From Phycisphaerae bacterium (GTDB lineage: Bacteria > Planctomycetota > Phycisphaerae > UBA1845 > Fen-1342), in assembly GCA_020058145.1 (NCBI GenBank), contig JAGVEP010000516.1, positions 1 to 32,516 of the forward strand: DNA of 32,516 bases, in the 5' to 3' direction. Below are positions 8,931 to 32,234 of this stretch, in pieces. Under the pieces are notes generated by a model. The model saw nothing but the letters and a program-made list of their open reading frames with translations. It was not told the DNA's origin and did no database searches. Within the stretch, counting starts at the first letter, position 1; each line of letters starts with the position of its first letter. Position numbers and translations under genes: made by a program.

Positions 8931-9041
8931 CGGTCGCGGCGCGGTTTTGCTGGGCGCGCTGCCGCAATTCGTGGTTAGAGAAGCAGGGAATCGAGCCTGC
9001 CAGCCGTGCATGGCACGGACCGTAACGGCGTGAGGCGGCGT

Positions 9042-13137: not shown

Positions 13138-15225
13138 CTATTCCACTTCCAGCGACAACAAGTACTCCTGCAACGCCTTTCGCTTGTGCTCTTCCTGATC
13201 CCGAGCGGCGGCGACCTGTTTGCCCAGGTCGGCGATGCGGGCATCTACCTCGTCGAATGACTTGAGCTGGCGCTGGTACGCGTCCGTGTTCTTATCCAGC
13301 GTCTTGAGGTTCTCGCGAATGCGGCCTTGCTCGGCGACCGCTTCCTGACGCTGCTGCTCCAGCCGGGTTCGTTGCCGCGTGACCGTGTCCAACTCAGTCC
13401 GCAACGCGACAACTCGCTCCAGTGCCTCCTTGACCTTGGGTGAAATCACCTTCGCGCGCAGGAAGATGCGGATGTCGTCGAGCCCGATTTCGCTCAGCAC
13501 CACCGACTGGTCCGCGACGCGCTCCAGCTTGACCGGATAGGACGCGGTCTTGCCGGCTGCCGCCGTCGTCTTGAACCGCAGCAGATTCTGCGTCCGCTCG
13601 AACGGCTCTTTCGGTTCGAGGAGCTTCCAGTCCTCGCTGTAGGGCTGCTCGATGATCACCGTGCGGTCTTTGTCGGCCTTGTTCTTGATCTGGTATTCGC
13701 GGGCGTCCACGTACTTGTGCCGATGCCACAGCGTGCCCTTGGCGATCCGCAGGCTGACCAGTTCCTCCGGCTGCGGCTGCTGCTTGGTCAGGATTTCCGT
13801 CGACAGGTCGAGCGCGTAAGCGACCAGCCGCTTCTCGTCCGGCTTCAGATCGGGCAGTTTCGCGTCGCCGGCATAGAGGTTGTCATCGAAGACCGTGACG
13901 GGGCCCTGCATCAGGTTCAGCCCGGTCGTGTTCTTGAGTTCGAGCCCGTTGAGCGGGTATTTCGGGTGCGTGCCGGGGTTGAAGATGCTGACCTTGGCCG
14001 CTTCGACGCTTTGGTTGACGATCGGGAGCATCGCCGAGTGCTGCCGCGGGATCGAGACCGGCGTGTCGATGCGATACTGGAACAGTTCGCCTGCTTCTAG
14101 GGCGGTGGCGAGGGAGGAAACACCCGCTTCCGCGAGATCGATCGTCCGTGGTGTGTACGTCTCTTCGGCCTTCCACCCATCCGATACCTGTGGCGTGGCC
14201 TCGGCCGGAGCTCCTTGGGCACCACCCCGCCCGCCCGGCGCGGCTTTCGCCATCATCGCCATCTCCCGTTTCGGCTCCTCTTTTCTGGGAGTTTCCATCT
14301 GGGCAGCGAACCCGCCCTCATAGTCCGGCGGCCTCAGTGAAGCGTACAGTTCGAGTTTTTCGAGCGGTCGCGGGACGTACAGCGGCGTGTACAGGTCCAT
14401 GCGGAACGAAATCGGCCGGCCCGACACGAGCGACAGCCCGACGTTGTTCCAATCCTCCTCGGTCGCGTTCTCGACCGTCGCCCAACCCTGAACGAACGGC
14501 TGCTTGTCCTTTTCGTCGGACAGCACGAGCCGGTAGCTGGTCTTCCAGATCGGGGCTTCGAGCAGGTACGCGACGCGCACTTTGCGCTCGCCCTGGCCTT
14601 CGAAGTTCACGAGCACGGTTTTCTTGTCCGCGTCGTGAGCGGTGGCGAGCGTGGCGAGAGCCTTGCGCAGCTCGCCGTCGATCTTGTCGTTGGTGAACTT
14701 GAGGTCCTGTATCTTCGTCAGCTCGATCTGTTGCAAGCCGGTCTCGGTGAGAATGGTCAAATACTCGATTTCCTGCAGGACCTTGCCGTCGGGGCTCAGA
14801 ATCTGCGACTTTTCGACGCCGACGATGGCGCCCTTGATGGTCCGCGCACCGGTGATTTCGACCGGCTCGCCGCGAAGCTGGTCGAGCAGTTGAGCCAGTG
14901 ACGGCTTGCCGGTCAGGTCGACGCCGAAGCTCTTGAGCGCCTTCTCGATCGGGTCGCGCGAGGCGTAGCTGATGATGCCGACCTTGCCGCCGCTGAAATC
15001 CTGCACGACCATCGACTTGATGATGTCGTTGATTTGCTCGGTGCGGAATTTCAGCTCGGCCTGGGCGGTAGCGCGCACGTTGGCGTCGCACTCAAAATAC
15101 CCGACGCCGCTCGAAAACAGCGCTACACGCGTGACCGGCAGGTCCGCGCGGTCGGCAGCCGCCGCAAGCGGGACAGTGAGCATCAGAACGAACATGGCGG
15201 GAACTCCTGGCTGGCGGTGCAGCAT
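13138..15225 (-). CDS. Secreted DUF4139-domain-like protein with C-terminal coiled coil
   Basis: Start set by GGAGGT six nt upstream of ATG at 15225; signal peptide MFVLMLTVPLAAAAD; LPVTRVALFSSGVGYFE, KTSYRLVLSDEKDKQPFVQGWATVENATEEDWNNVGLSLVSGRPISF, PLYVPRP; coiled-coil C-terminus. Confidence 0.75.
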   Translation of the reverse strand: MLHRQPGVPAMFVLMLTVPLAAAADRADLPVTRVALFSSGVGYFECDANVRATAQAELKFRTEQINDIIKSMVVQDFSGGKVGIISYASRDPIEKALKSFGVDLTGKPSLAQLLDQLRGEPVEITGARTIKGAIVGVEKSQILSPDGKVLQEIEYLTILTETGLQQIELTKIQDLKFTNDKIDGELRKALATLATAHDADKKTVLVNFEGQGERKVRVAYLLEAPIWKTSYRLVLSDEKDKQPFVQGWATVENATEEDWNNVGLSLVSGRPISFRMDLYTPLYVPRPLEKLELYASLRPPDYEGGFAAQMETPRKEEPKREMAMMAKAAPGGRGGAQGAPAEATPQVSDGWKAEETYTPRTIDLAEAGVSSLATALEAGELFQYRIDTPVSIPRQHSAMLPIVNQSVEAAKVSIFNPGTHPKYPLNGLELKNTTGLNLMQGPVTVFDDNLYAGDAKLPDLKPDEKRLVAYALDLSTEILTKQQPQPEELVSLRIAKGTLWHRHKYVDAREYQIKNKADKDRTVIIEQPYSEDWKLLEPKEPFERTQNLLRFKTTAAAGKTASYPVKLERVADQSVVLSEIGLDDIRIFLRAKVISPKVKEALERVVALRTELDTVTRQRTRLEQQRQEAVAEQGRIRENLKTLDKNTDAYQRQLKSFDEVDARIADLGKQVAAARDQEEHKRKALQEYLLSLEVE

Positions 15226-15324
15226 GATCGACCTCCGAGTAACGGACCAGTGCCCGATGGGGTGACATTCTACCACTCTTATACGGTATCTGACGCCGGC
15301 GGCGGCGGATAGTTCCCGGGAAGA

Positions 15325-15375
15325 AGGCACGAAGGCACGGAGGGACGGAGGGACGGAGGGACGGAGGGACGGAGG
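15325..15375 (+). repeat. 8-bp tandem array AGGCACGA/AGGCACGG/(AGGGACGG)x4
   Basis: Six consecutive 8-mers read directly; regularly spaced GGG runs. Confidence 0.9.
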
Positions 15376-15384
15376 AATGCGAAC

Positions 15385-15420
15385 CAGTTCCCACGTTCCC
15401 ACCTTCCCACGTTCCCACCC
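15385..15420 (-). repeat. Second 8-bp array on the opposite strand (GGGAACGT/GGGAAGGT)
   Basis: Plus strand CAGTTCCC-ACGTTCCC-ACCTTCCC-ACGTTCCC-ACCC. Confidence 0.88.
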
Positions 15421-17945: not shown

Positions 17946-20246
17946 TCACGGGCCGGTGAACACGCGCTGGAAGATGGCGACGTCGGCGAGGTCCACACCA
18001 CCGTCGCTGTCCAGATCGGAATCCGGGAAGTGGTTGCCGGTGCAGCCGCCGGGACAGGCATTTCCGGGACCGGCCAAGCAGCCGGCAAACACGTTGAAGT
18101 CGCTGCCGTCCACGTCGCCGTCCGTGTCGAAATCGACCTCATAGTACATGCCGATCGCGTGCAGCATGGGCCGGATTTCCGGGTTCGCCATGAAGAGATC
18201 CCAGCAGAGCCCGGTGCGGTAGTTCTCGATCATCGGCGCGATCGTGCCCTCGTCGATTGCGATGTAGCCTGGTGCAAACCAGTTGTTCTGAGGATTGAAC
18301 GCGTCGACAAAGCCGGACACGCCCCAGAGGTTCGCGCCGTACACGTCGTAGTATTGCCGCACAGCGGCCAGCGACTCTGTCGGTGTGTACGGCAGCGCGC
18401 TTGCGGCCGCGGTTGGCGTGATGGTGCCGTTATCATTCGTCGGCGAATGGGCGGAATAGCCCCACGGGTTGAAGCTGGCCGTCAGACCCCACACATACGC
18501 GCTGTAGCCCGCATACGAATGCGGATTGCTGCTGCAGTAGTCGTGGTGCACCAGCGAGATGTTGCGCGCGTTGTCAAAGTAGTTCGCGTACACGTCCCGC
18601 TTGTAGCGCGGGTCGAAGCCCAGGTTCGAGTAGTGTGTGAAGAACAGCGGGCCGCCATACGGCGGACCGACCCAGATCGTGTGACCGTAGTAGCCTTGCC
18701 CGTTGACATAGCCACCCCCGCCGGCCCAGCCGTTGTGATAGCTCGACGCCGGCATCGGATACGTCGGCGACGCGACCGCCAGCAGGTACACAATCATCGC
18801 CTCATTGAACCCACGGATCGGCATGTTCATGTACCAGCCGTAATTCGGCGACCAGTGCCAGTACAGCACGTCGCCGCCCGCATAGCGGCGGTACCAGCTC
18901 CACTCGACAGATTCCCACATCTGCGTTGCCCGCGTGCGGATCTCCGTCTCGACCGGGTCGGCGGGATTGTCGAAATACTGCTGCGCCGTGAGGATGCCCT
19001 CGATGAGAAACGCGGTTTCAACCAGGTCGCCGCCGTTGTCCTGGGCGCCCGCGAATGGAAGCGTCGCGCCCGTGACGCCGTTGTAGTGGTGCGACCACGC
19101 GCCGTGGTAACGCGGCGTAACGTCTTGCACGAAGGCCAGGATTGTGCGGATGCGCGCCGCTGCCTGGGCCCGCGTAATGAAGCCGCGCTCCGCTCCGACC
19201 ACGATGGTCATGAGCCCCATGCCCGTCCCGCCGGTCGTCACGGTGTCGAACGGATGCCCCATGTTCATGCCCTCGCGGGCCATTCCGCAGTTCGGGTGCG
19301 CATCTTCCCAGAAATAGTGCAACGTCGTACGTTGAATGGTGTCAAGCAGCTCGTCGTCCGTTAGGCCGTCGTACAGGGCCGAGACGATCGCCGAGGCCGC
19401 CGTCTCCACGCCGTTCACCATCGCCGTCACGTAGTAGTAATACCGCGGGCTGCCCGCGCCGACACCGTCCGAGTAACCCGCCCCGATGACCAGCGCCCCG
19501 TTGATCTTCGTGTACGGCCCGCCCTGCGCCGTCGCGCGATAGACGTTGTAACCCGCTAAACCGCTTACCGACAGCGGCTTCCAAACCAGCGAAAGATGCT
19601 CGGCGTACGCGTTGGCGGCCACACCTTGCACGCCTGGCGACCCGCCGATGTGCCGAAGACGCAGGTTGTCCACGTAAACAGTGCCGCTGGTGCCGGCCAA
19701 ATTCTGCAGCACGAACGCCCAGATCTGGTTCAGCCCGGTCTGCTCGCGCGCCGACACGTCGAACGTGATCGTTGTCCACACGCCGACCATCGTCGGAATG
19801 CCCGTGGCCTGCTGCCAGACGTCCGGCGGATACCAGTTCGAGTCCCAGATGCCGATCAGGCCGGGCAGCCCACCAGACGAGGCCACGTATACGTCGGCCA
19901 GCAACTGGTCCTCGTTGGCCAAGTCGTAGGTGTGCGCGGACCAAAAGTGCCGAAACTCGACTTTGCGGTCCGTCTCATTCGTGATTGTCACGCGCAGGAC
20001 GTATGACCCGTCAGTCGCCGGCGGAGCACCGCCAACGTCGCCGGGTACGATCGCCACCGCCAACCCCGGATCGCCGGAGTTCGCGACCACGCTCAGGTCG
20101 GTCTCCGACGGCTCATAGCTGGCCAGCGGCGTGAAGATGTCTGCAGACGCCGGAATCACCGCGGGCAGCACCACGAGCGTGGCGACGAGCACCACCCGCC
20201 GACAACCTGCGCGAGACGCCGGCACACGTATCACGTTGGAGCACAT
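17946..20246 (-). CDS. Secreted PF10091 glucoamylase-like / GH144-like glycosidase with CBM-like, FN3 and C-terminal dockerin-like regions
   Basis: LLDTIQRTTLHYFWEDAHPNCGMAREG, GGTGMGLMTIVVGAERGFITRAQAAARI, DNGGDLVETAFLIEGILTAQQYF, PIRGFNEAMIVYLLAVASPTYPMP, WGVSGFVDAFNP, YIAIDEGTIAPMIENYRTGLCWDLFM; FN3 LAGYNVYRATAQGGPYTKI; tail DTDGDVDGSDFNVFAGCL and DLDSDGGVDLADVAIFQRVF. AAGGA upstream of ATG 20246. Confidence 0.85.
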   Translation of the reverse strand: MCSNVIRVPASRAGCRRVVLVATLVVLPAVIPASADIFTPLASYEPSETDLSVVANSGDPGLAVAIVPGDVGGAPPATDGSYVLRVTITNETDRKVEFRHFWSAHTYDLANEDQLLADVYVASSGGLPGLIGIWDSNWYPPDVWQQATGIPTMVGVWTTITFDVSAREQTGLNQIWAFVLQNLAGTSGTVYVDNLRLRHIGGSPGVQGVAANAYAEHLSLVWKPLSVSGLAGYNVYRATAQGGPYTKINGALVIGAGYSDGVGAGSPRYYYYVTAMVNGVETAASAIVSALYDGLTDDELLDTIQRTTLHYFWEDAHPNCGMAREGMNMGHPFDTVTTGGTGMGLMTIVVGAERGFITRAQAAARIRTILAFVQDVTPRYHGAWSHHYNGVTGATLPFAGAQDNGGDLVETAFLIEGILTAQQYFDNPADPVETEIRTRATQMWESVEWSWYRRYAGGDVLYWHWSPNYGWYMNMPIRGFNEAMIVYLLAVASPTYPMPASSYHNGWAGGGGYVNGQGYYGHTIWVGPPYGGPLFFTHYSNLGFDPRYKRDVYANYFDNARNISLVHHDYCSSNPHSYAGYSAYVWGLTASFNPWGYSAHSPTNDNGTITPTAAASALPYTPTESLAAVRQYYDVYGANLWGVSGFVDAFNPQNNWFAPGYIAIDEGTIAPMIENYRTGLCWDLFMANPEIRPMLHAIGMYYEVDFDTDGDVDGSDFNVFAGCLAGPGNACPGGCTGNHFPDSDLDSDGGVDLADVAIFQRVFTGP

Positions 20247-20317
20247 TTCCTTCTCCCTCGAAGCAACACACGCGCGGCCAACGGCCGCGCCAACCTCCCC
20301 GCGGGTAACTGGCGAAC

Positions 20318-20389
20318 AAGGACCAAGGGACTCAAACACTCAACCGCCGCATTGGGAACGCGGCGCTCTTCCGGGCGAGTCACATACCC
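20318..20389 (-). pseudogene. Degenerate tRNA-like sequence (tRNA-Gly CCC-like)
   Basis: Minus strand GGGTATGTGACTCGCCCGGAAGAGCGCCGCGTTCCCAATGCGGCGGTTGAGTGTTTGAGTCCCTTGGTCCTT: near-intact D arm, 5-bp anticodon stem with loop TTCCCAA, T-loop TTTGAGT. Acceptor stem does not pair. Confidence 0.6.
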
Positions 20390-20606: not shown

Positions 20607-23600
20607 TCAGGGCGACAAGGTAACCGTCACGCTCCCCTTGATGACTTTCAGCGTGACCTGGTGCTCCGTGAACGCAGCCACCATCCCCGCGTCCGTCTGG
20701 ACCGCGCGAAGCACTCGTTCGCCGGGGACCCGGAAGACCAAACCGCCCGGCGGGATGTCACCCGCACCGTCCAGGGTGAGCACGATCTGGTTGCCGCCGG
20801 CGCGCAGCGCGTAAGACAGCCGGCCGTACTCCGTCGGCCAGCGCGCAATCGAGACGCCTGCCGGCATTTCCAGCCACTCCGGCCGAACCCCGGCAGCCAG
20901 TACGAGCGCCTCATCCTGGGTGCGCTCGTACACGAACATACTGCGAAACGCGTTCAGAAACTCCGAGCCTACCCAGGTGTGCGGCAAGTCCCCGATGAAT
21001 TTGGGCGCCGCCGGATCGTGCCACACGACCTCCGGCCACTGGTTCCAGCCCGTTGGACACTGATCGTGCAGGAAGAAATCCAACAACTCGTGCACCTGGC
21101 GCGGCTGTTCCAGCCGCACGAACGTCCCCACCAGCCGTAGCTCATAGGGCGTGTAGTTAAGCCACTCGAGTTTGCCGTCGCGGCGCTGGCAGAAGAAGTC
21201 ATAGTAGCGGGCAAAGGTGTTCTGTAGCAGCGGCCCGGGCAGGTTGTCGCCCTCTTCGCACGGAAAAAGGGCAATGGCGGTCGAGGTCGCGTCGAAATCG
21301 CCGAGTTCGGCACAGCCGGGGATGTAGCCGACGTGTTTTTGCTCTACCGCCAGGTTCACCGAATCGCGCAGGCTGCCGCGGAAGGCATCCCGCAGCCGGG
21401 TGAAGCGTGCCTCCGCCTCCGGCTGCCGCATAATCCGCGCCAGCCGCACGGCGTCCTTCAGGCCGCGTGCGATCCAGAAATCGTCCCAATAGGAGTGCAT
21501 GGGCTTGGCCGAGTAGCCCTCGTGGCTGATTGATTCCGGCACCAGTCCATAGCAGACGCGTTTTTCGGGCGGCCCGTCGCGGTACTCCGGCGTGAGCCGC
21601 TGTTTGCGCAATTCCTCGATGTAGCTCACGGCGGAAACGACTTGTGGCCAATGCCGCTGCAGGAATTGGGCGTCGCGCGTGAAGTTGTAGTACGCCAGCA
21701 GCGCGTAGAGGAACTCGCCGGCGCTGTCGTGTTCCGGGACCGGGTCGGGTCCGCGGCGGTCCACGACACAGGGGATCTTCCCGTTCTCGTATTGGTAACC
21801 CGCAAACCAATCCAGAAAGCGGCGCGCCGCTTCCGCATGGCCCGTGCAGAGCAGCGCTGTCGACGTCAGCGCACCGTCGCGAATCCAACTGCGTTCGTAG
21901 GTGCGCGATCCGGGTTGAATAGCCGGTCCGTCGGCGTTGATGAGGATGTACGCTTGCGTGGTCCGGAAGGTACTCACGAGCCGGGCAGCGTCGGCGGGCA
22001 GGGTAAGTTCGACGCGGTGTAGCATCCTCTCCCAATCGCGGCCCGCCTTCACACGGCGCGCGTCGAAATCGGCTTCCACGCGCCCGCGCTCATGGCTGGC
22101 GGCCTCAATTGAAGCGTCGTGAAAGGGCATTTCCACCACGACGGTCGTGTGTGCGCCGGGCTCCAGGTCGAGATTCCAGCGCCACGCGCCCGAGGCCAGG
22201 GCCGCGGGATCGGTAGCCGTCTGGGTGGGCGGCAGCTTGTTCGTCGCCAGATACTCAATCACCTCGCCCTGGTCGAAACGCGTTGCGCCGAACCCGTCGG
22301 GAGCGCCCCATGGCTTCAGTATCTTTTGGTCGTTTACGACCACGCTTCCGTTCTCGGCGCGGAGCGACGTGATTTGGGCTGCTCCGCCCGTTATGCCGAG
22401 GTCTTGCCAGGGTGGCAGCACCTGAAAAGGCCGGATTCCGACGTACAACGCGCCATTCAAGCGCGCCGCACCCCGATTCGACAGCCGATACTGCGCCAGC
22501 AACGTGGAATGTCCGGCCGGTCCATCCGCCAGCGCGGTGATCTCCAGCTCGGCGTCGTCCAGCTTCCACGTCACCGTAGGAATCGGCAGATAATCGTCCA
22601 GGAGCTTCTGCGTCCACGACGCATCGGCCCAGGTAATCAGCCGCCCATTCAGATAAAGGAACGGTTCGAGTCGAAACCCGAGCTTGTCCACTTCCAGGGC
22701 ACCCGCGACGTCGAACAGGGCTTCCTTGTCGTCCTCCGGGACGCCCACCACCGTCCACCACTGCTGCTGCCCCAGGAAGTAGCGGGGATACCAGCCGCGC
22801 GGCGACTCGCTGGCGATCGTCGCGAACATGCGGTTTCGCGATTCGCCAAACTCCGGCTCCAGCACCCGCAGCCGTTTTACACCTACCCCGCGGCCCCGAC
22901 TGGTCTGCCGCACGGCGAGGCGCAGCGCAGTGGCCTCGACGTCCCGCAAAGGAAGGTAATGCCGGCCGCCGCGGCCGGATTCCAGGGTGCTCACCGTCTG
23001 CCACTGTTGGCCATCTTCGGAAACGGACACGTCGTACGCGACCGGGTAATCGTCCTCGTCCCAGGTGACGGCTAGCCCACCAATTTCGCGTGCCGCCGGG
23101 AACTCGACGGCCAGCGACGGTTGCAAGTCTGTCGCGGCACTGTGCCAGTCGAGCCGGCCCGTTTCATCCAGGGTCAACCACGCGGCAGCGCCTGCCGCTG
23201 CGGACGATGCGCGTACGTGCAGCGGGCCGGCGGCGCGAACCTCGGGCAAGGCCTCAAAAGTCAGCTCATCAAACCAGAGCGAGCCCTTTCCGCCGCTGCC
23301 GGCGGCCACGGCGATCTCGAGCGCGCCCAGCGTCTCGAAACGCTGGCCCCCCGACGGTCCCCAGGCGAACCGGAACTTCCGCGCCGGGTACGACAGCGTG
23401 CGCCACTCGCGGGGGAACTCGAAACTGCGTCGATTCACCCACCACACGTTCTCGCCCGAGAGATCGAGCAGCTTGAACTCCAGGTTGTTGGCCGGTCCCT
23501 CGCCGCGCATCCGGAGTTGAAACCGGTAGTTCGCCGGCAAGGGCATGGGCAGGGCGCGTCGCAGGACGCAGAAGCCCGAGCCGCGCTCGAAGTCGAAGTC

Positions 23601-23783
23601 CAGCCGCAGAGCCTGGGCCTCGTGTCCCGCGTCCGGGCTGATGGACGCACGCACGCCGTCGGACGCCAGCACTTTCCACGTGTCTGGTGAGGCAAAGTCG
23701 TCGAGCAGCACCGGCTGGCACCACGCGGTCGCGGCCGCGAGTAGCACGATCGCCGTCGAAACGAAAGACCGAGCCTTGTTCAT
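20607..23783 (-). CDS. Secreted discoidin (F5/8)-like plus (alpha/alpha)6 six-hairpin putative glycosidase
   Basis: Signal peptide MNKARSFVSTAIVLLAAATAWC; N-terminal jelly roll; discoidin-like YPVAYDVSVSEDGQQWQTVSTLESGRGGRHYLPLRDVEATALRLAVRQ; six-hairpin hallmarks RTYERSWIRDGALTSTALLCTGHAEAARRFLDWFAGYQYENGKIP, HDSAGEFLYALLAYYNFTRD, WDDFWIARGLKDAVRLA, LPHTWVGSEFLNAFRSMF. Confidence 0.8.
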   Translation of the reverse strand: MNKARSFVSTAIVLLAAATAWCQPVLLDDFASPDTWKVLASDGVRASISPDAGHEAQALRLDFDFERGSGFCVLRRALPMPLPANYRFQLRMRGEGPANNLEFKLLDLSGENVWWVNRRSFEFPREWRTLSYPARKFRFAWGPSGGQRFETLGALEIAVAAGSGGKGSLWFDELTFEALPEVRAAGPLHVRASSAAAGAAAWLTLDETGRLDWHSAATDLQPSLAVEFPAAREIGGLAVTWDEDDYPVAYDVSVSEDGQQWQTVSTLESGRGGRHYLPLRDVEATALRLAVRQTSRGRGVGVKRLRVLEPEFGESRNRMFATIASESPRGWYPRYFLGQQQWWTVVGVPEDDKEALFDVAGALEVDKLGFRLEPFLYLNGRLITWADASWTQKLLDDYLPIPTVTWKLDDAELEITALADGPAGHSTLLAQYRLSNRGAARLNGALYVGIRPFQVLPPWQDLGITGGAAQITSLRAENGSVVVNDQKILKPWGAPDGFGATRFDQGEVIEYLATNKLPPTQTATDPAALASGAWRWNLDLEPGAHTTVVVEMPFHDASIEAASHERGRVEADFDARRVKAGRDWERMLHRVELTLPADAARLVSTFRTTQAYILINADGPAIQPGSRTYERSWIRDGALTSTALLCTGHAEAARRFLDWFAGYQYENGKIPCVVDRRGPDPVPEHDSAGEFLYALLAYYNFTRDAQFLQRHWPQVVSAVSYIEELRKQRLTPEYRDGPPEKRVCYGLVPESISHEGYSAKPMHSYWDDFWIARGLKDAVRLARIMRQPEAEARFTRLRDAFRGSLRDSVNLAVEQKHVGYIPGCAELGDFDATSTAIALFPCEEGDNLPGPLLQNTFARYYDFFCQRRDGKLEWLNYTPYELRLVGTFVRLEQPRQVHELLDFFLHDQCPTGWNQWPEVVWHDPAAPKFIGDLPHTWVGSEFLNAFRSMFVYERTQDEALVLAAGVRPEWLEMPAGVSIARWPTEYGRLSYALRAGGNQIVLTLDGAGDIPPGGLVFRVPGERVLRAVQTDAGMVAAFTEHQVTLKVIKGSVTVTLSP

Positions 23784-23845: not shown

Positions 23846-24907
23846 TCACTGGACGGGTCTGCACCCGCAGGACTCGCGCACGATCAACTCCGCCTCCAGG
23901 GTCACCCGCGTCGGTGGACGCTGCGGATCGGCGATCCGCTGGCACAACAACTCGATGGCCCGCGCGCCCATTTTCGCCATCGGTACCCGCACCGTGGTCA
24001 GCGGCGGGCGCATCATGCGCGCGATCCGCGTGTCGTCAAAGCCCACCACGGCCAGGTCCTGCGGCACGGCCAAGCCCGCCGCCGTTGCCGCCGCGACAAT
24101 CCCGGAAGCCATCTCGTCGTTGGCCGCAAAGACACAGTGTCTCGGTCCCGCCCACGCGCGCACGCGCTCCGTGCCCAGCCGAAACGCGGTTTCGTACTGG
24201 TAGTCGAGATAGTGGATGTCGTTCGGCACGACCGGCACGTTGGACCGCATGAGCACTTCTTTGTATGCCCGCAGCCGCGCGATCGTATCCACGTTGGTCG
24301 CGGGTCCGCCCACAAAGATGATGCGTTGCGCGCCGCAGCGCTCGAGCAGGTGACGCATCATCGCGACGGCCCCCTGTTTCTGATCGATCACGACGCTGTC
24401 GTGCACGGCGCCGTCGAGTTCGGCGTCGAGCACCACGTACGGCATGCGCGCGGTGGCCAGCGTCTCCTGAATGCGATCACGCAGCTCGGCCACCATGACG
24501 GCCACGCCGTCCAGCAGGCTGCGCTGTTGAATGGCACGCAGCAGCGAATGGCTGTCCGCGCTCTCGTGGGCCGAGGAGACAATCAGGTTGTACCCCGACT
24601 GGCGGGCCTGGAGATTCGCCCCCCGGATGATCTCGGAGTAGAACTCGCCGTGCAGGTCGGGCAGGACAAGCGCGACGATCTCGCTCTTGCGCAGCATCAA
24701 CCCACGGGCGAACGCGTTGGGCTGATACCCGAGCTTCTTGATCGCGGCTTCGACACGCGAACGAGTCGTTTCGTTTACCAGTTCGCGGCGGTTGATGACG
24801 CGCGACACGGTACTGATCGAGACTCTGGCCAACTTGGCCACGTCCGCAATCGAAGCGGGCACGTCACCTGGCCGCACGGAATGTCGCTGGGATGCTGTCT
24901 TTGACAC
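23846..24907 (-). CDS. LacI-family transcriptional regulator
   Basis: ASIADVAKLARVSISTVSRVINRRELVNETTRSRVEAAIKKLGYQPNAFARGL helix-turn-helix and hinge; periplasmic-binding-like core VVGFDDTRIARMMRPPLTTVRVPMAKMGARAIELL. Start is likely an internal GTG (24907/24910), though the ORF reaches ATG 24949. Confidence 0.95.
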   Translation of the reverse strand: MSKTASQRHSVRPGDVPASIADVAKLARVSISTVSRVINRRELVNETTRSRVEAAIKKLGYQPNAFARGLMLRKSEIVALVLPDLHGEFYSEIIRGANLQARQSGYNLIVSSAHESADSHSLLRAIQQRSLLDGVAVMVAELRDRIQETLATARMPYVVLDAELDGAVHDSVVIDQKQGAVAMMRHLLERCGAQRIIFVGGPATNVDTIARLRAYKEVLMRSNVPVVPNDIHYLDYQYETAFRLGTERVRAWAGPRHCVFAANDEMASGIVAAATAAGLAVPQDLAVVGFDDTRIARMMRPPLTTVRVPMAKMGARAIELLCQRIADPQRPPTRVTLEAELIVRESCGCRPVQ

Positions 24908-24929
24908 CACTTCCTGCGCATGATATCTT
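24901..24929 (+). promoter_or_regulatory. Sigma70-type promoter with extended -10 for the PF10091 gene
   Basis: TTGACA (24901-24906), 17-bp spacer, TGaTATCTT (-10 at 24924-24929). Confidence 0.65.
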
Positions 24930-24937
24930 TGGGCCGC

Positions 24938-26419
24938 ATGAAGAGTCAAATCACGGTGGCTACGCTGCTTACGTGCACGGCGCTGGCGCTGGGGCCCAGT
25001 GGCTCAGTGCCACCAGCGGATTCTATTCTGCGGACTGCCGAAACCGAAGCGGCGCTCCAATACCGGTTCAGCGACGCCGAGCAGGCCTTGCTCAACGAGG
25101 TCGAGCGGGGTTGCTTCCTGTATTTCTGGAAGGAAGTCGGGCAGCCGGCCCAGCTTGCCAAGGATCGTATGAAAGCCCCCGTGGCGAGTATCGCCGCGAT
25201 CGGCTTTCAGCTCTCGGCTCTGCCGATTGGCGTGGAGCGGGGCTGGATCACGCGGGACGAGGGGCTGCAACGGGCGCGCCGCGTTTTGACGGCGCTCCGC
25301 GAGCGCGACGACAACAAGAAATTCGGCGTGTATCTCCACTATCCGGACCCCAACACCGGCGGGCTTTCCCACGCAGGGTTTGAGATTCTCGCCAGCACCG
25401 TCGACCACGCACTGTTGCTGGCCGGCGTGATTACCGCGGGCCAGTACTTCGGGGGCGAAATCGCGCAGTACGCCGAGCGGTTCGTGGCCGACACCAACTG
25501 GCGGGCGTTCGCGGTGGGCGGCGGCGGCTACCTTTCCATGGGCTGGCGACCGGACGACCCCAAGAGCGTGGCAGGACCTGGCAAGTTCCTGGACGCACAC
25601 TGGAGCTTTGCCAGCGACGAGGAGCGGCTGGTCTACTTCCTGGCGGCCGGGGCCTCCGACCCCAATTTTGCCGTGGCGCCCGAGTGCTACTACCGCCTGA
25701 AGCGCGTCGTCCGGCAGCATGAGAACCGGCCCCCTTTTGTGGCCTCCTGGCCGGGCTCGGCCTTCACGTACGTTTTCAGCCACTGTTGGATCGACTGCCG
25801 CCGCCTCGCGGCCGATGATCCCGCGAGCTTCGGCGTAGCCGGCCCGCGCGTCGACTGGTTTGAGAACTCACGCCGCGCCCTGTTGACCCATCGCCAGCGC
25901 TGTATTGAGCAGTCCGCCCGGTACAAGACCCTGGCGCCCGACCGCTGGGGTCTCAGCCCCTGTTCGGCCCGCGACGGCTACATCGTCCCGGAGATTCAGC
26001 CCAGTGCCAGCGGCAACGACCAGTGGTTTGAAGGTACGGTCGCGCCGTACGCCGCCATCTCCGCGATCATGTTCACCCCTCAGGAGAGCCTGGCCGCCAT
26101 TCGTGCGTTCCGCGCCCTGCAGGACCGGAGCGGCCGGCCGCTCATTTGGCGCGACCCCAACGAGGGCGGCTACGGGTTCGTGGACGCCTTCAATCTCGAC
26201 CAGGGTTTCGCCTGCGACGACTATGTCGGAATCGACGTGGGCCCGACACTGCTCGCCATCGAGAACGCCCGCACGGGTCTGATCTGGAAGCTGTTCATGA
26301 AGGATCCCTCCGTGCGGCGTGCCATGGATCGTCTGGGCTGGCGCGCGAGCGACGACTCGCCGCCGGCCAGCGCCCCCGCTTCCGCACCGACCACGCCGAA
26401 TCCCAGCGATTTGCGTTGA
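24938..26419 (+). CDS. PF10091 glucoamylase-like / GH144-related protein (second paralogue)
   Basis: FLYFWKEVGQPAQLAKDRM, AIGFQLSALPIGVERGWITRDEGLQRARRVLTAL, EGTVAPYAAISAIMFTPQESLAAIRAFRALQ, GGYGFVDAFNLDQGFACDDYVGIDVGPTLLAIENARTGLIWKLFMKDP; N-terminal signal-like MKSQITVATLLTCTALALG. Confidence 0.85.
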   Translation: MKSQITVATLLTCTALALGPSGSVPPADSILRTAETEAALQYRFSDAEQALLNEVERGCFLYFWKEVGQPAQLAKDRMKAPVASIAAIGFQLSALPIGVERGWITRDEGLQRARRVLTALRERDDNKKFGVYLHYPDPNTGGLSHAGFEILASTVDHALLLAGVITAGQYFGGEIAQYAERFVADTNWRAFAVGGGGYLSMGWRPDDPKSVAGPGKFLDAHWSFASDEERLVYFLAAGASDPNFAVAPECYYRLKRVVRQHENRPPFVASWPGSAFTYVFSHCWIDCRRLAADDPASFGVAGPRVDWFENSRRALLTHRQRCIEQSARYKTLAPDRWGLSPCSARDGYIVPEIQPSASGNDQWFEGTVAPYAAISAIMFTPQESLAAIRAFRALQDRSGRPLIWRDPNEGGYGFVDAFNLDQGFACDDYVGIDVGPTLLAIENARTGLIWKLFMKDPSVRRAMDRLGWRASDDSPPASAPASAPTTPNPSDLR

Positions 26420-26444
26420 ACTCGCGGGCACCTCGTGTTATACT
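26416..26444 (+). promoter_or_regulatory. Sigma70-type promoter upstream of GH94 gene
   Basis: TTGAAC (26416-26421), 17-bp spacer, TATACT (26439-26444). Confidence 0.75.
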
Positions 26445-26446
26445 AC

Positions 26447-26460
26447 TGAAAACGCTTTCA
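26447..26460. promoter_or_regulatory. LacI-family operator TGAAAACGCTTTCA
   Basis: Fits the cre/LacI-type consensus TGWAANCGNTNWCA; overlaps the expected +1 of the promoter at 26416-26444. Confidence 0.8.
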
Positions 26461-26516
26461 TCCGGTCGGACACGGCAAGGCTGCGGCGTTTCTTGTGCGT
26501 TTATCGGACACACCTG

Positions 26517-28982
26517 ATGACGACCGTCGTGAGGGTTCCTGCAACCCTCGTTGAACATCGTGCTGCTCCGTCCGCGGTGGCGAATCGCTATGGGCATTTT
26601 GCCGCCGACGGCAGCGAGTACTTGATCACAGACCCACAGACTCCGCGCCCCTGGGTCAATGTTATCGCCAATCCCCGCTTGGGCCTGGTGGTCAGCCATA
26701 CAGGCAGCGGTTTCACGTGGGTCGATAACTCGCAGCTCGCCGTGCTCACCCGTTGGCAACAGGATCTTGCGCACGACTCGTCCGGCAAGTTCCTCTATGC
26801 GCGCGACACCGCCACGGGCGAAATCTGGTCGCTCTCCCCGGCCCCCGTCTGGCCACGCTATGAACGATACCTCTGTCGTCACGGCCTCGGCTACACCTGC
26901 TTTGACACGACCTTCGGCGGTATCCAGGCCAAGTGGACGCTTTTCTGCCACACGCGCGAAACCATCGAGTTTTGGCGCGTCGAGCTGTGCAACCACAGCG
27001 ATCGGATTCGCCGGCTGGAACTGACCGCGCTGCTCGAATGGAATTGCGGCGTGGCGCCTGCGCCGCGCCGTGAGTTCCAGAAGCTCTTCCTGGAGACGGA
27101 ATTCGACCTGTCCCGGCGGACGATCTACGCGCGCAACCACATGTGGGAAGTCCCCTCGGCGCGGCATGGGCACTGGAATGCCGATTTCCCTTACGTCAGC
27201 GCCTTTGGCTGTACCGCGCCGGTGGTTGCCGCCCAAGGCGACAAGGCGGCGTTTCTCGGCCGCAACGGCGACCTGCGCGCCCCCGAAGCCCTGCGCCAGA
27301 GCCTGTGGAAACCCGAGTTCGGCCGCCACAGCGATCCCATCGCGGCCTTGCGCAATGTCGTCGATGTGCGTCCCGGCCAGACCGTACGGCTGGGCTATGT
27401 GCTGGCCGTCGCCGAATCGCGCCCCGCAGTGGAACGGCTGCTGGAGCACCGGGCGCGGTGGTCCGACGCGGACGGCGCAGTGGACGCGCTGGACAGCGCC
27501 TTGCTTGAAACTCAATCCGCCTGGCGTGAGCGCCTGGCCGCCAGCCGCATCGCTACGCCCGAGCCCGCCTTGAACTACCTGGTGAACGACTGGGTGCGGT
27601 ATCAGGCCATCTCTGGACGAATCTGGGGCCGCTGCGGCTATTACCAGCAGAGCGGCGGCTACGGTTTCCGCGATCAGCTTCAGGATTCGCAGGTCTGGCT
27701 GACGATCAACCCGCAGAAGTGCCGGGACCAGATCAATCTCCATGCAGCCCACCAGTTCGCGGACGGCTCGGTTTACCACTGGTGGCACCCGCTGACGGAG
27801 CAGGGCCACGTCACGAAGATGACCGACGACCTGCTCTGGCTGGCGTTCTGCACCGCGAACTACATCAAAGAGACCGGGGACCTCGGGGTCCTCGGCGATC
27901 TCGCACCCTTCCTCGACGACGGCCAGCGGTATCCGCTGCTGGAGCACGTGCAGCGCGCCTTTCTCCGGGTGTTCAAACGTACGAGTGCCCGCGGTCTGCC
28001 GTATATCGGGGCGGGGGACTGGAACGATGGCTTGAGTGCCGTCGGACTGCAGGAGCGCGGCGAGTCGGTTTGGCTGGCGCATTTTCTGGTCGGATTGCTG
28101 GCGGATTGGGCGCATATTTACGCCCAGGTCGGCCAGCCGGAGCGGGCGACGGAGTTCCGGGAGCGCCGCGCACAGTTGATCGCGGCGATCAACGAACACG
28201 CCTGGGACGGCGCATGGTACATACGGGCCACGCTCGACGATGGTGCCAAGCTGGGCAGTCACGAAAACCGCGTGGGCCGGATTTTCCTCAACGCGCAGAC
28301 GTGGGCCGTGCTCAACGATGTGGCGCCGCCCGAGCGGGCCAGGCAGTGCATGGCCGCCGTGCGTCAACACCTGATTACCGAAGCCGGCGCTTTGCTGCTG
28401 GCGCCCGCTTTTGACCAGCCTATTCCCGAAATCGGGTACATCACCCGCTACGCCCCGGGCCTGCGCGAGAATGGCGGTGTTTACACGCACGCCGCCACGT
28501 GGTGCCTCGCGGCGGCGTGCAAGCTGGGGGACCACGAGCTGGTCGGGCACCTGCTCACGGCCATCAACCCGGCGCTTAAGGATCCGGAACGCTATTGGGC
28601 GGAGCCCTACGTCCTGCCCGGCAACGTTGACGGCCCCGACTCGCCGCACCATGGTCGCGCGGGCTGGACCTGGTACACCGGCGCGGCGCAGTGGCTACAC
28701 CGTGTCGTGACGGAGTGGGTACTCGGTGTCCGCCCCGAGTGGGACGGCCTGCGCATCGCCCCCTGCCTGCCGCCCGGCTGGCAGCACGCCACCCTGACGC
28801 GTCCGTATCGCGGCTGTTCGTACCAGATCCGCATCGCGCGTGCGTCTGCGGAAGAGGTCCACGCTTGGCCGGCGCACATGCGTGCGCAGGTCACGCTGGA
28901 CGGACAGAGCTTACCCACCAATTGCATTCGGCCCCCCGCCCAGCCCGACGTGCGCCACGACGTGCTGGTGCGGTGTCGGTGA
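26517..28982 (+). CDS. GH94-family beta-glucoside/oligoglucan phosphorylase
   Basis: YGHFAADGSEYLITDPQTPRPWVNVIANPRLGLVVSHTGSGFTW; GGYGFRDQLQDSQVWL; HWWHPLTEQGHVTKMTDDLLWLAF; IGAGDWNDGLSAVGLQERGESVWLAHFL; LLLAPAFDQPIPEIGYITRYAPGLRENGGVYTHAATW. ATG 26517 lies inside a longer ORF. Confidence 0.92.
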   Translation: MTTVVRVPATLVEHRAAPSAVANRYGHFAADGSEYLITDPQTPRPWVNVIANPRLGLVVSHTGSGFTWVDNSQLAVLTRWQQDLAHDSSGKFLYARDTATGEIWSLSPAPVWPRYERYLCRHGLGYTCFDTTFGGIQAKWTLFCHTRETIEFWRVELCNHSDRIRRLELTALLEWNCGVAPAPRREFQKLFLETEFDLSRRTIYARNHMWEVPSARHGHWNADFPYVSAFGCTAPVVAAQGDKAAFLGRNGDLRAPEALRQSLWKPEFGRHSDPIAALRNVVDVRPGQTVRLGYVLAVAESRPAVERLLEHRARWSDADGAVDALDSALLETQSAWRERLAASRIATPEPALNYLVNDWVRYQAISGRIWGRCGYYQQSGGYGFRDQLQDSQVWLTINPQKCRDQINLHAAHQFADGSVYHWWHPLTEQGHVTKMTDDLLWLAFCTANYIKETGDLGVLGDLAPFLDDGQRYPLLEHVQRAFLRVFKRTSARGLPYIGAGDWNDGLSAVGLQERGESVWLAHFLVGLLADWAHIYAQVGQPERATEFRERRAQLIAAINEHAWDGAWYIRATLDDGAKLGSHENRVGRIFLNAQTWAVLNDVAPPERARQCMAAVRQHLITEAGALLLAPAFDQPIPEIGYITRYAPGLRENGGVYTHAATWCLAAACKLGDHELVGHLLTAINPALKDPERYWAEPYVLPGNVDGPDSPHHGRAGWTWYTGAAQWLHRVVTEWVLGVRPEWDGLRIAPCLPPGWQHATLTRPYRGCSYQIRIARASAEEVHAWPAHMRAQVTLDGQSLPTNCIRPPAQPDVRHDVLVRCR

Positions 28983-29113: not shown

Positions 29114-29992
29114 TTACCCCTTCAGGCCCGTCGTCGCGATTCCGCGAATGAAGGTCCGCTGCGCGAACAGGAAGAGGATCACGACCGGCAGCACGATCAG
29201 CGTGGAGGCGGCGAGCAACTGGTTCCAGGGCGTGTCGCCCGAGCGGCTTTGGAGGAACTGCAGCCCCAGGGCAAGCGTGAACTGGTCCTGGTGCGACAGG
29301 TAGATGAGCGGGCCGATCAAGTCGTTCCAGACCGCCAGGCAATGAAACAACGCGACAACCGCCAGCGCGGGTTTGGAGAGCGGGAGCATGATGCGCCAGA
29401 AGCAACCCCAGCGGCTGCAACCGTCGAGCATCGCCGATTCTTCCAGCTCCCGCGGCAGCCCCAGGAAGAACTGCCGCAGCAGGAAGATGTTGAACGCGCT
29501 GCCGAACCAGGCGGGGGCCCAGAGGGGCCGAAATGTGCCGATCCAGCCGAGGTATTTGAAGATCATGTAGGTCGGCACCATGATGACCGGGAAGGGGATC
29601 ATCATGGTGGCCAGGCAGATCGCGAACATCAGGTTGCGGCCGGGGAAGTTGAGGCGCGCGAAGCCGTAGGCGGCGATCGAACTGGACAGGAGCATGCCGA
29701 TCAGGCTCAGCACCGTGATGATCAGCGTATTGCGCGCGTAGAGCACGTAGTTGAACGCGCCGCGTTCGACGGCGCGATCGCCGGTCGTCGCCGTGTCCTG
29801 GCCGACGCTCACACCGATCACGGCACGGTAGGCGTCCAAAGTTGGGTGCGCGGGGAGCGGGTCGGGCCGGAAGACTTCGCGCGTGGGCTTGAGCGAGACG
29901 CTCACCATCCAGAGCAAGGGGAGCAGGAACGCCGCCGCCGCGAGCGCGAGCAGCAGGTAGGTGAGAATCCGTTTGGCCGCGGACGGGTTCAT
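29114..29992 (-). CDS. Carbohydrate ABC transporter permease (MalG-type)
   Basis: LLPLLWMVSVSLKPTREVF; FINAL MOTIF-like ELEESAMLDGCSRWGCFWRIMLPLSKPALAVVALF (EAA loop). Confidence 0.93.
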   Translation of the reverse strand: MNPSAAKRILTYLLLALAAAAFLLPLLWMVSVSLKPTREVFRPDPLPAHPTLDAYRAVIGVSVGQDTATTGDRAVERGAFNYVLYARNTLIITVLSLIGMLLSSSIAAYGFARLNFPGRNLMFAICLATMMIPFPVIMVPTYMIFKYLGWIGTFRPLWAPAWFGSAFNIFLLRQFFLGLPRELEESAMLDGCSRWGCFWRIMLPLSKPALAVVALFHCLAVWNDLIGPLIYLSHQDQFTLALGLQFLQSRSGDTPWNQLLAASTLIVLPVVILFLFAQRTFIRGIATTGLKG

Positions 29993-30879
29993 CAGAGGCC
30001 TCGGTAGTGTACGGTTCGGCGGCTAAGTAGAAATACCAGGCCGGTGAGGGCCAGAATGATCAGGAACTGGACCCAGGCCAGTGCGCTGGCATACCCCATT
30101 TTCAGATAATTGAACGCGTTGTCGAAGAGGTACATGGTGTAGAAATAGGTCACGCGGTCGGGGCCGGGGCGCGTCCGCCACATCATGTAGGGCAGCGCAA
30201 AGACCTGCCACGAGGTGATAATGCCCATGATCACGTTGAAAAGGATGACGGGGCTGATGCCCGGCAGGGTCACGTGCCAGAGCTGGCGGGAGGCAGAGGC
30301 GCCGTCGAGCTTGGCCGCCTCGTACAGTTCCTCGGGAATCTCCTGCAAACCCGCCAGGTAGATCACGACCGGCGAGCCGATAAACCACAGGCTGACCAGG
30401 ACGAGCGAGACCATCGCCCAACGCGGGGATTCCAGCCACAGCGGGGGCTGCGCCACGCCGACGGTCCGCAGCGACGTGCTGAGCAGGCCGTACTCCGGGT
30501 TCATCATCCACATCCAGACGACGCCGGCGGCGACCAGCGGGACGATGGTGGGCACGAAGATGCAGGCGCGGAAGAAAGCCTGCCCGCGAACGCGCTGATT
30601 GAGCAGAATGGCCAGCAAGACCGCGAGCACCGTGCCGACCGGGATGGCGGTGCTCGCGTAGATCACGGTGTTCCAGACCGCCTTGTGAAAGACGGCGTCG
30701 TGGACGAGTTGCTGATAGTTGGCCAAGCCGACGAAGACCGGCGGCTGCAGCAGGGGATAGTCGCAGAAGCTGATATACAGGGAGATAACCATCGGCCCGG
30801 CGAGTAGCAGCAGAAAGCCCAGCCACCACGGCGCGGTCCACAGCAGGCCGGTGAAGAGCGAATGGCGCGCCGGTCTCAC
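29992..30879 (-). CDS. Carbohydrate ABC transporter permease (MalF-type)
   Basis: ISLYISFCDYPLLQPPVFVGLANYQQL; EAA loop EIPEELYEAAKLDGASASRQLWHVTLPGISPVILF. Stop overlaps the next start (TGATG). Confidence 0.93.
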   Translation of the reverse strand: MRPARHSLFTGLLWTAPWWLGFLLLLAGPMVISLYISFCDYPLLQPPVFVGLANYQQLVHDAVFHKAVWNTVIYASTAIPVGTVLAVLLAILLNQRVRGQAFFRACIFVPTIVPLVAAGVVWMWMMNPEYGLLSTSLRTVGVAQPPLWLESPRWAMVSLVLVSLWFIGSPVVIYLAGLQEIPEELYEAAKLDGASASRQLWHVTLPGISPVILFNVIMGIITSWQVFALPYMMWRTRPGPDRVTYFYTMYLFDNAFNYLKMGYASALAWVQFLIILALTGLVFLLSRRTVHYRGL

Positions 30880-32234
30880 CGCGCACCTCCCCGGCGATGG
30901 GCCGCCATGCGTTCGTAGTCCGCCACCACGCTATCCACTTTCGTTTGCGTCATGCGAATGGCCTCGGCGGGCTCGCGCGCCTCGCGCATCACGGTCTCCA
31001 GCAGGTACAGCATCTCCGTCCACGCCTCAGCCCAGGTCGGCATGGAGGGATAGCCGAACACTTCGGGCGAGGTGGCCATTTCATCGAACACGTGGATGTG
31101 CGGGTTGGGATGCCGGGCAAAGAACTCGGAGCCGGGGAGGCGATAAGGCGATACTTTGCCGTGCGCTTGGCACAGTTCCTCCATGACTTCCTGGCGGAGA
31201 ACGTATTCTAGAAACACCATGGCCTCGCGCGGGTGGCGGGCACCGGTGGGAATGACGAACACGTCCTCGCTGGCGAAGACGTGCTGGCGCTCACGCGTTA
31301 CCGACGGAAACGGCGCGACGCCGTAATCGAGATCCGGCGCATAGACCCGCGCCCAATTGGCCAGCCACGGCCCCTGGAAGACCATCGCGAGCTGACCGCT
31401 CAGGAAGGGGTTCTGGGCACTCTCGATGGCCGCGGAAGTGCCCTCGAATTGCAGGACCCGGTCGTTGCCGACCGCCGTCCGCAGCTCGCGGACCCAGCCG
31501 AGCGCCGCGTGGGTCGCGGGTGTGTCGAGCGTGAAGCGCCGGCCATCCCAGAGCTGGCCATCAAAGAAATAAGGCCAGATCCAGGTCCACCAGCCGAGCA
31601 TGGCCGGCGAAACGGTGAAGCCGAGCTGGACGATGCGACCCGCGCGGGGGTTGGTTGGGTCGCCGCCCTCAAAGCGGGTCAGCCGCTGGGCGTATTCGTT
31701 CAATTCCGCCGTGGTCTGCGGCGGATGATCCGGATCGAGGCCCGCGGCGCGGAAGAGGCTGCGGTTGTAGTAGAGCGCAATGGTGTAGGGCGTGCTCGGT
31801 AGCGCGTACAGCTTGCCATCGTAACGGCAGATGCTGAGCCAGATTGGCTTGAAGGCGTCCAAGTCGAGGCTGAACTCGCGCGCCAGGTCGTCCAACGGCC
31901 GCAACGCGCCCTGATCGGCGTATGGCGGGACAAAGCGATCGGGCAGGCCCGCGACGTCGGGGGGGTCGCCGCCGGCGGCGGAAATCAACATGCGCTTATC
32001 GACGTCGCCCAAGGCGTTGTAGTCGACCCAGATGCCGCGTCGCGTCCCCTCGGTTTGGTTGAACCGATCGACGATGCGCTGCATGGCCTGGCCTTCGACC
32101 CCGGTCCACTTTTCCCAATAGCGGACGATGGTCCGGTCCGGCGGAACCTCGTGAAGGCCACGCGGCCCGAAGGCCAACAGCCCCGCCGCGGGCAGCCCGA
32201 GCACGAGCACGAGGATAACGCCGCGAATGTTCAT
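30876..32234 (-). CDS. Extracellular sugar-binding protein (family 1, ABC transporter)
   Basis: VRYWEKWTGVEGQAMQRIVDRFNQTEGTRRGIWVDYNALGDVDKRMLISAAGGDPPDVAGLPDRFVPPYADQGALRPLDDL; LAMVFQGPWLANW; 4-bp ATGA overlap with the downstream permease. Confidence 0.93.
   Translation of the reverse strand: MNIRGVILVLVLGLPAAGLLAFGPRGLHEVPPDRTIVRYWEKWTGVEGQAMQRIVDRFNQTEGTRRGIWVDYNALGDVDKRMLISAAGGDPPDVAGLPDRFVPPYADQGALRPLDDLAREFSLDLDAFKPIWLSICRYDGKLYALPSTPYTIALYYNRSLFRAAGLDPDHPPQTTAELNEYAQRLTRFEGGDPTNPRAGRIVQLGFTVSPAMLGWWTWIWPYFFDGQLWDGRRFTLDTPATHAALGWVRELRTAVGNDRVLQFEGTSAAIESAQNPFLSGQLAMVFQGPWLANWARVYAPDLDYGVAPFPSVTRERQHVFASEDVFVIPTGARHPREAMVFLEYVLRQEVMEELCQAHGKVSPYRLPGSEFFARHPNPHIHVFDEMATSPEVFGYPSMPTWAEAWTEMLYLLETVMREAREPAEAIRMTQTKVDSVVADYERMAAHRRGGAR

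What the first reader, a model, noticed from the sequence alone, without database searches (positions are those of the whole stretch)
20607..23783. 1058-aa discoidin/six-hairpin protein: possible undescribed glycosidase family in a beta-glucan locus
Secreted protein with jelly-roll and discoidin-like N-terminus and an (alpha/alpha)6-barrel-like C-terminal half (ERSWIRDGA, HDSAGEF, WDDFWIARGL, LPHTWVGSEF). I cannot match it to a named GH family from memory. It sits 62 bp downstream of lacI on the same strand and between the two PF10091 genes, which suggests a role in the same pathway.
Basis: partly seen in the sequence, partly recalled or inferred. Interest (0 to 1): 0.75.

Follow-up and report, generated by a model that had tools for sequence, protein, structure and literature searches.

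The report
Unnamed enzyme in beta-1,2-glucan loci
The gene encodes a secreted sugar-cleaving enzyme of a large, widespread and still unnamed family that sits beside the known beta-1,2-glucan digestion genes in hundreds of bacteria, and whose active site resembles enzymes that cut alpha-linked glucose, so it may remove the links that the known enzymes cannot.

Summary
The 1058-aa ORF is real (minus strand, 20607-23783). [quoted passage not shown] No curated Pfam or NCBIfam family claims the barrel at a full-length score, and no PDB entry is a sequence relative of it. At least 563 relatives exist across several phyla. They sit in beta-1,2-glucan loci: PF10091/GH144, CGS-type GH94, SOGP or GH35 genes lie nearby in 63 of 79 sampled loci. 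In two Planctomycetota genomes where no GH144 gene was found, the homologue directly adjoins a beta-1,2-glucan GH94 phosphorylase. LacI-type operators are enriched upstream of it. Profile-profile alignment ties the barrel to GH15 (E 2.7e-10; reversed control 0.19), not to GH144. E755 and E918 align with the GH15 general acid and base, and in the model they lie in the matching loops. Most likely it is a secreted, inverting exo-glucosidase with a GH15-like pocket. The best guess for its target is a link that GH144, GH94, GH35 and GH3 do not cut, such as the alpha-1,6 bond of alpha-1,6-cyclised beta-1,2-glucans. Exo-beta-1,2-glucosidase activity is the main rival. No activity was shown.

The parts
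20607..23783 (-). 1058-aa secreted six-hairpin glycosidase candidate (P0001)
23721..23783 (-). signal-peptide-like N-terminus, residues 1-21
   Evidence: AF2 helix 2-21; hydrophobic stretch in 73/73 homologues
23244..23711 (-). CBM11-like beta-sandwich, residues 25-180
   Evidence: profile search of PDB hits Endoglucanase H CBM11, E 1e-5; AF2 strands
22854..23222 (-). F5/8 type C (CBM32-like) domain, residues 188-310
   Evidence: Pfam PF00754 E 9e-9; PDB profile hits E 2e-14
22104..22826 (-). beta-supersandwich domain, residues 320-560
   Evidence: AF2 strands; the GH94 match 8bou covers its last part and the linker
20934..22088 (-). linker helix and (alpha/alpha)6 barrel, residues 566-950
   Evidence: AF2; Foldseek GH94 and GH15; hhalign GH15
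21876..21899 (-). Y629-ERSWIR-D636, GH15 subsite -1 motif; Y629 and D636 align with the positions of TtGA Tyr337/Asp344
   Evidence: PMC8626586
21519..21521 (-). E755, inferred general acid (alpha5-alpha6 loop)
   Evidence: invariant in 73 and in the 58-member wider set; aligned with the GH15 acid
21030..21032 (-). E918, inferred general base (alpha11-alpha12 loop)
   Evidence: invariant; aligned with the GH15 base
17946..20339 (-). PF10091 protein, GH144-like (797 aa), downstream on the same strand
   Evidence: Pfam E 2e-67; PDB 4gl3, 5z06, 5gzh
23846..24949 (-). LacI-family regulator (HTH starts at residue 33, so the true start is probably near 24860)
24920..26419 (+). second PF10091 protein, GH144-like (499 aa)
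26447..26460 (+). TGAAAACGCTTTCA, LacI-type palindrome between PF10091 and the probable GH94 start
   Evidence: enriched upstream of homologues
26319..28982 (+). [quoted passage not shown] domains start near residue 88
29114..32234 (-). sugar ABC importer: two permeases (29114-29992, 29992-30879) and binding protein (30876-32234)

Best explanation
A secreted or periplasmic exo-acting glucosidase of a new sequence family with a GH15-like (clan GH-L-type) active site, working inside a beta-1,2-glucan catabolic system. Two carbohydrate-binding domains hold the glucan. The barrel pocket binds a non-reducing-end glucose (Y629, W633, R635, D636). E755 protonates the leaving oxygen and E918 activates water, with inversion. 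Its most likely job is to remove glucose held by links that the co-encoded GH144, GH94, GH35 and GH3 enzymes do not cut, above all the alpha-1,6 bond left after GH144 opens alpha-1,6-cyclised beta-1,2-glucans, so that the rest can be imported and phosphorolysed. Shown by computation: gene, domains, fold, conservation, locus association. Inferred: exo mode, acid/base roles, inversion. Most speculative: the alpha-1,6 target (about 0.35 alone).
For: Locus: PF10091, CGS-GH94, SOGP-GH94 or GH35 genes within about 10 kb in 63 of 79 sampled loci from several phyla, many on truncated contigs; PF10091 immediately upstream on the same strand in 37. Genomes: 17/17 with a strong homologue have PF10091 versus 10/44 without, p 1.6e-8. 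Where no PF10091 was found the homologue adjoins SOGP (L154) or CGS-type GH94 (L155). LacI operators upstream: 6 seen, 0.6 expected, p 3e-5. Mechanism: hhalign to GH15 prob 96.8, E 2.7e-10 over 289 columns, versus 0.19 for reversed GH15, 0.04 for the best of 20 shuffles and 0.49 for GH144; E755, E918, Y629, D636 align with the GH15 acid, base and subsite residues. TIGR01577 (oligosaccharide amylase) matches 56/58 members, best 7e-14. In the AF2 model E755 and E918 lie in the alpha5-6 and alpha11-12 loops, where GH15 and GH65 carry acid and base (PMC8626586, PMC12446779). The pair is kept in most 22-31% relatives. Many loci already hold GH144, GH35, SOGP and GH3 or GH1, so a further beta-1,2 hydrolase would be redundant.
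Against: No activity data. GH94, which cleaves beta-glucosides, is as good a Foldseek match as GH15 (TM 0.57-0.60 versus 0.56-0.60), so anomer specificity is not settled. The core 25-member profile alone aligned to GH15 over only 54 columns (E 3e-5); the full-length alignment needs the distant relatives. Some GH144-bearing genomes lack the family. Alpha-1,6-cyclised glucans are reported from few genera in the papers read (PMC11842490). Gammaproteobacterial hosts carry CGS-sized PF10091 genes, whose expected product lacks alpha-1,6 bonds.
Confidence: 0.5

Rival explanations
1. A beta-specific exo-hydrolase: it releases glucose or sophorose from the non-reducing end of beta-1,2-glucooligosaccharides made by GH144 (or removes beta-1,6 side glucoses of OPGs), using the same E755/E918 pair with the sugar turned over, as GH94 does in the same fold.
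For: Only beta-1,2-glucan enzymes are its constant neighbours; GH94, a beta-glucoside phosphorylase family, is a top Foldseek match and aligns full length by profile with probability 89.
Against: Many loci already hold GH3 or GH1 beta-glucosidases and two GH144 paralogues; the best helical-domain profile match is to an alpha-glucosidase family.
Confidence: 0.28
2. A transglycosylase (retaining, like GH15-type dextran dextrinase 9ju0, or inverting) that re-links glucosyl units of beta-1,2-glucans rather than hydrolysing them.
For: Dextran dextrinase is among the closest structures, and its authors state that GH15 mechanism cannot be told from sequence (PMC12446779); loci often carry a GH35 gene, a family that includes a beta-1,2-glucosyltransferase (PMC8861115).
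Against: Catabolic setting with importers and phosphorylases; most characterised GH15 enzymes hydrolyse.
Confidence: 0.12
3. A glycoside phosphorylase like GH94.
For: Same fold, GH94 among the top structural matches.
Against: The profile alignment puts invariant P879 at the GH94 phosphate-binding His and V938 at the Thr (ligand identities from own knowledge); an acid occupies the base position; secreted, where phosphate is scarce.
Confidence: 0.03
4. A catalytically dead binding protein in the locus.
For: Two N-terminal carbohydrate-binding-type domains.
Against: E755, E918, Y629 and D636 are conserved from gammaproteobacteria to Bacteroidetes.
Confidence: 0.03

Closest known systems
GH15 (bacterial glucoamylase 1lf6, glucodextranase 1ug9, dextran dextrinase 9ju0)
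   Same: Supersandwich plus (alpha/alpha)6 barrel; acid in alpha5-6 loop, base in alpha11-12 loop; Y..W-x-RD subsite -1 motif; hhalign E 2.7e-10; TMq 0.56-0.60
   Different: About 12% identity; Pfam GH15 not matched by the window protein and only weakly by 12/58 members; extra CBM11-like and F5/8C domains; long conserved loops (ISHEGYSAKPMHSYWD, ELGDFDATSTA) of its own; beta-1,2-glucan loci
GH94 phosphorylases (cellobiose phosphorylase 8ho7, CGS GH94 domain 8rf0)
   Same: Domain order and fold, TMq 0.57-0.62; genomic partner
   Different: 9-13% identity, phosphate ligands apparently replaced, acid at the base position, secreted
GH144 and clan GH-S (5gzh, 5z06, 8xul)
   Same: (alpha/alpha)6 barrel in general; same loci
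   Different: No sequence-profile relation (prob 0.1); GH144 structures were not among the 50 best Foldseek matches listed
GH133/GDE_C and GH78-type six-hairpin domains
   Same: Weak Pfam matches (GDE_C E 2e-5 for the window protein; rhamnosidase 6H up to 5e-8 in the family)
   Different: Partial, around the RD and EHDS motifs; below or just above curated cut-offs

Membership tests
GH15 | sequence match to the GH15 family model | tested here: not met
   PF00723 absent for the window protein, best 4e-4 in 12/58; TIGR01577 38 bits against a 820.7 cut-off
GH15 | acid in alpha5-6 loop and base in alpha11-12 loop | tested here: met
   E755 and E918 by AF2 helices and hhalign
GH15 | Tyr and RD motif of subsite -1 | tested here: met
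   Y629, R635, D636 invariant in 73 homologues
GH15 | alpha-glucosidic substrate, inversion | not testable with these tools
   needs assay
GH94 | phosphate-binding residues | tested here: not met
   His aligned to P879, Thr to V938; alignment of moderate probability, ligand identities from own knowledge
GH94 | fold with supersandwich | tested here: met
GH144 / clan GH-S | PF10091 signature or profile relation | tested here: not met
   no PF10091 hit; hhalign 0.1
beta-1,2-glucan utilisation locus | co-located GH144, SOGP/CGS-GH94 and sugar transporter genes | tested here: met
   window genes and relatives
Any CAZy family | listed in CAZy | not testable with these tools
   dbCAN/CAZy not on hand; Pfam, NCBIfam and PDB have no sequence family for the barrel

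The most novel reading that the evidence does not exclude
A new glycoside hydrolase family, kin to clan GH-L, whose members are the missing enzymes that break the alpha-1,6 link of alpha-1,6-cyclised beta-1,2-glucans (the osmoregulated periplasmic glucans of Xanthomonas, Ralstonia and Cereibacter), making alpha-glucosidases a standard part of beta-1,2-glucan catabolism.
Probability: 0.33. Interest if true: 0.8.

Novelty: new variant of a known kind. Interest (0 to 1): 0.62.

Why it matters
Beta-1,2-glucans are virulence, symbiosis and osmoprotection factors in many Gram-negative bacteria, and new glycoside hydrolase families for them are still being found. Here a family with at least 563 relatives travels with those genes, is named only 'discoidin domain-containing protein' in the annotated plasmids where it was seen, and carries a GH15-like catalytic site. 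That makes a direct test possible of how the non-beta-1,2 links of periplasmic glucans are cut, a step for which no enzyme was found in the literature searched here.

Tried and rejected
Single-sequence search of the PDB found nothing for the barrel. GH144/clan GH-S kinship was rejected. GH94-type phosphorolysis is disfavoured because two phosphate ligands appear to be lost. A plain chance neighbourhood was rejected by the multi-phylum loci and genome co-occurrence. The acid-base distance could not be measured because the model coordinates are not exposed. The first hhalign with the narrower family misplaced the acid; the wider superfamily profile fixed it, so the acid assignment rests on that profile, on loop position and on invariance. 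The supplement of PMC8861115 showing the Ignavibacterium album cluster could not be read.

Full report
Observation. The ORF at 20607-23783 lies on the minus strand and encodes 1058 aa from an ATG. lacI ends 62 bp upstream on the same strand, and PF10091 genes lie on either side. Next to lacI, on the plus strand, are PF10091 and GH94, then a sugar ABC importer on the minus strand.

Anatomy. Pfam finds an F5/8C domain (192-295) and only weak six-hairpin hits: GDE_C E 3e-5, just above its cut-off, and Bac_rhamnosid6H below its cut-off. NCBIfam gives TIGR01577 oligosaccharide amylase at 36.9 bits against a cut-off of 820.7. A profile of 73 homologues recognises CBM32-like domains at about 190-312 and the CBM11 of Endoglucanase H at 27-180. 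AlphaFold2 with that alignment gives mean pLDDT 93.1 and pTM 0.91, with the order signal peptide, CBM11-like, F5/8C, supersandwich (320-560), linker helix, twelve barrel helices (597-948) and C-terminal beta domain. The catalytic part alone (739 aa) gives pLDDT 93.9. Foldseek against the PDB puts GH94 phosphorylases, GH15 dextran dextrinase, glucodextranase and bacterial glucoamylase, and the CGS GH94 domain among the best matches at TMq of about 0.5-0.62, all at 13% identity or less.

Family. The 80 kept come from Phycisphaerae, Bacteroidetes, Ignavibacteria, Calditrichia, Gemmatimonadetes, gammaproteobacteria (Methylocaldum, Competibacteraceae), former Deltaproteobacteria and others. Plasmids of Xanthomonas sacchari and Croceibacterium carry it next to TonB receptors and 'glucoamylase family' (PF10091-type) genes. 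In the annotated plasmid records it is called 'discoidin domain-containing protein' where it is annotated at all. All 73 aligned homologues have a hydrophobic, signal-peptide-like N-terminus.

Neighbourhood. Clustering the genes within 10 kb gives PF10091 in 55 loci, CGS-type GH94 in 29, GH35 in 27, MFS_2 in 25, SOGP-type GH94 in 19, GH3 in 14, plus ABC importers, SusD/TonB, GH1 and LacI. One of the four beta-1,2-glucan enzyme groups is present in 64 of 80 including the window. The gene immediately upstream on the same strand is PF10091 in 37 loci. In the window's order and family, all 17 genomes with a strong homologue have PF10091, versus 10 of 44 without (Fisher p 1.6e-8). A rough chance of a PF10091 gene within 10 kb is about 1% per locus. 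Of 16 genomes whose locus showed no nearby PF10091 gene, 15 carry a PF10091 match elsewhere, several on CGS-sized ORFs. In two Planctomycetota genomes without a detected PF10091 the homologue directly adjoins SOGP (L154, an apparent operon with an ABC transporter) or CGS-type GH94 (L155). The partner enzymes are known from PMC8861115, PMC12102758 and PMC12369401.

Regulation. TGAAANCGNTTTCA, a LacI-type palindrome, occurs at 26447-26460 before GH94 in the window. Allowing one mismatch there are 32 copies in 1.44 Mb of loci; six lie just upstream of the homologue against 0.6 expected, binomial p 3e-5. Other copies precede GH94, PF10091, GH1 and lacI.

Mechanism. Across 73 homologues, D636, D675, D680, E684, D686, D704, E755, D767, D829, D831, E918 and D932 are invariant. 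With 32%-identical relatives added, E755 and E918 remain invariant. The helical domain with its distant relatives aligns to GH15 from the same taxonomic order with probability 96.8 and E 2.7e-10 over 289 columns. Reversed GH15 gives 0.19, the best of 20 column shuffles 0.04, GH144 0.49; GH15 against GH94 or GDE_C gives only 1e-5 to 1e-4. In that alignment E755 pairs with the GH15 general acid, E918 with the general base, Y629 and D636 with the Tyr and Asp of subsite -1 (TtGA Tyr337 and Asp344 in PMC8626586). In the model E755 lies between helices 705-727 and 765-784 (alpha5-6), and E918 between 894-906 and 936-948 (alpha11-12), where GH15 and GH65 hold acid and base (PMC12446779, PMC8626586). 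This is inference from homology and a model; the carboxylate distance was not measured.

Substrate. Known GH15 members act on alpha-glucosides and release glucose from non-reducing ends (PMC12446779). Beta-1,2-glucans with one alpha-1,6 link are made by Xanthomonas, Ralstonia and Cereibacter (PMC11842490). Once GH144 opens such a ring, trimming from the non-reducing end would stop at the alpha-1,6 unit, so a GH15-like exo-glucosidase would fill that gap (inference). Many loci already contain GH144 paralogues, GH3 or GH1, GH35 and phosphorylases, so an extra linear-beta-1,2 hydrolase would be redundant. Against this, GH94 shows the same fold cutting beta bonds, and the hosts are broader than the known producers. 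I give the GH15-like exo-glucosidase in beta-1,2-glucan catabolism about 0.5 as stated, and the alpha-1,6 target by itself about 0.35.

Novelty. No curated Pfam or NCBIfam family claims the barrel at a full-length score and no PDB entry is a sequence relative. Literature searches found no paper describing it, but CAZy itself could not be checked. It works like GH15; it is not filed as GH15 because the sequence-model criterion fails.

Noticed in passing
window 26447-26460; L045:9953, L049:3373, L055:9784, L056:1436, L059:9847, L090:4735 and 9907, L116:6041: LacI/CcpA-type palindrome TGAAANCGNTTTCA recurs upstream of the enzyme, GH94, PF10091, GH1 and lacI: a likely beta-1,2-glucan regulon operator.
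   Followed up: partly
L154:8818-16894 (minus): Apparent operon ABC_membrane_2 transporter / SOGP / homologue, with no PF10091 gene found in the genome and no obvious signal peptide: possibly an intracellular version.
   Followed up: partly
L041, L042, L044, L047, L090, L091 and others (clusters c13, c18): A roughly 300-aa PEP-CTERM protein and a DUF1559/N_methyl-like protein recur in Phycisphaerae loci, the former often behind the same operator.
   Followed up: no
L157:9178-11454, L158:9407-11692, L159:7479-9737, L160:8075-10489: A separate planctomycete protein family (about 760-800 aa, N-terminus of MWLKWLPWK type in three of four) at 22-26% identity keeps both putative catalytic Glu and the EWDSNGQ/YWDDFW motifs; unnamed.
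   Followed up: partly
L037:7923-13961: 2013-aa protein joining GH2 sugar-binding domains to a relative of this barrel.
   Followed up: no
L038:8950-11649, L039:9260-11989: Relatives at about 26% that lack both catalytic Glu equivalents in the alignment: another activity, or misaligned.
   Followed up: no
L062:13178-17020, L072:13146-16622, L075:8018-11431, L118:4054-7905: 1138-1284-aa stand-alone proteins with two supersandwich domains and GH94, resembling the C-terminal part of cyclic glucan synthase (L062, E 7e-287), next to the homologue; several such genomes also hold CGS-sized PF10091 ORFs.
   Followed up: partly
L036:8338-11635: The homologue is split over two overlapping frames in genome G002 (frameshift or assembly error).
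   Followed up: no
window 9006-11810 (+), 2281-3318 (-), 13138-15402 (-): Ser/Thr kinase with a TPR array, FliM, and a MuiA-like protein elsewhere in the window.
   Followed up: no
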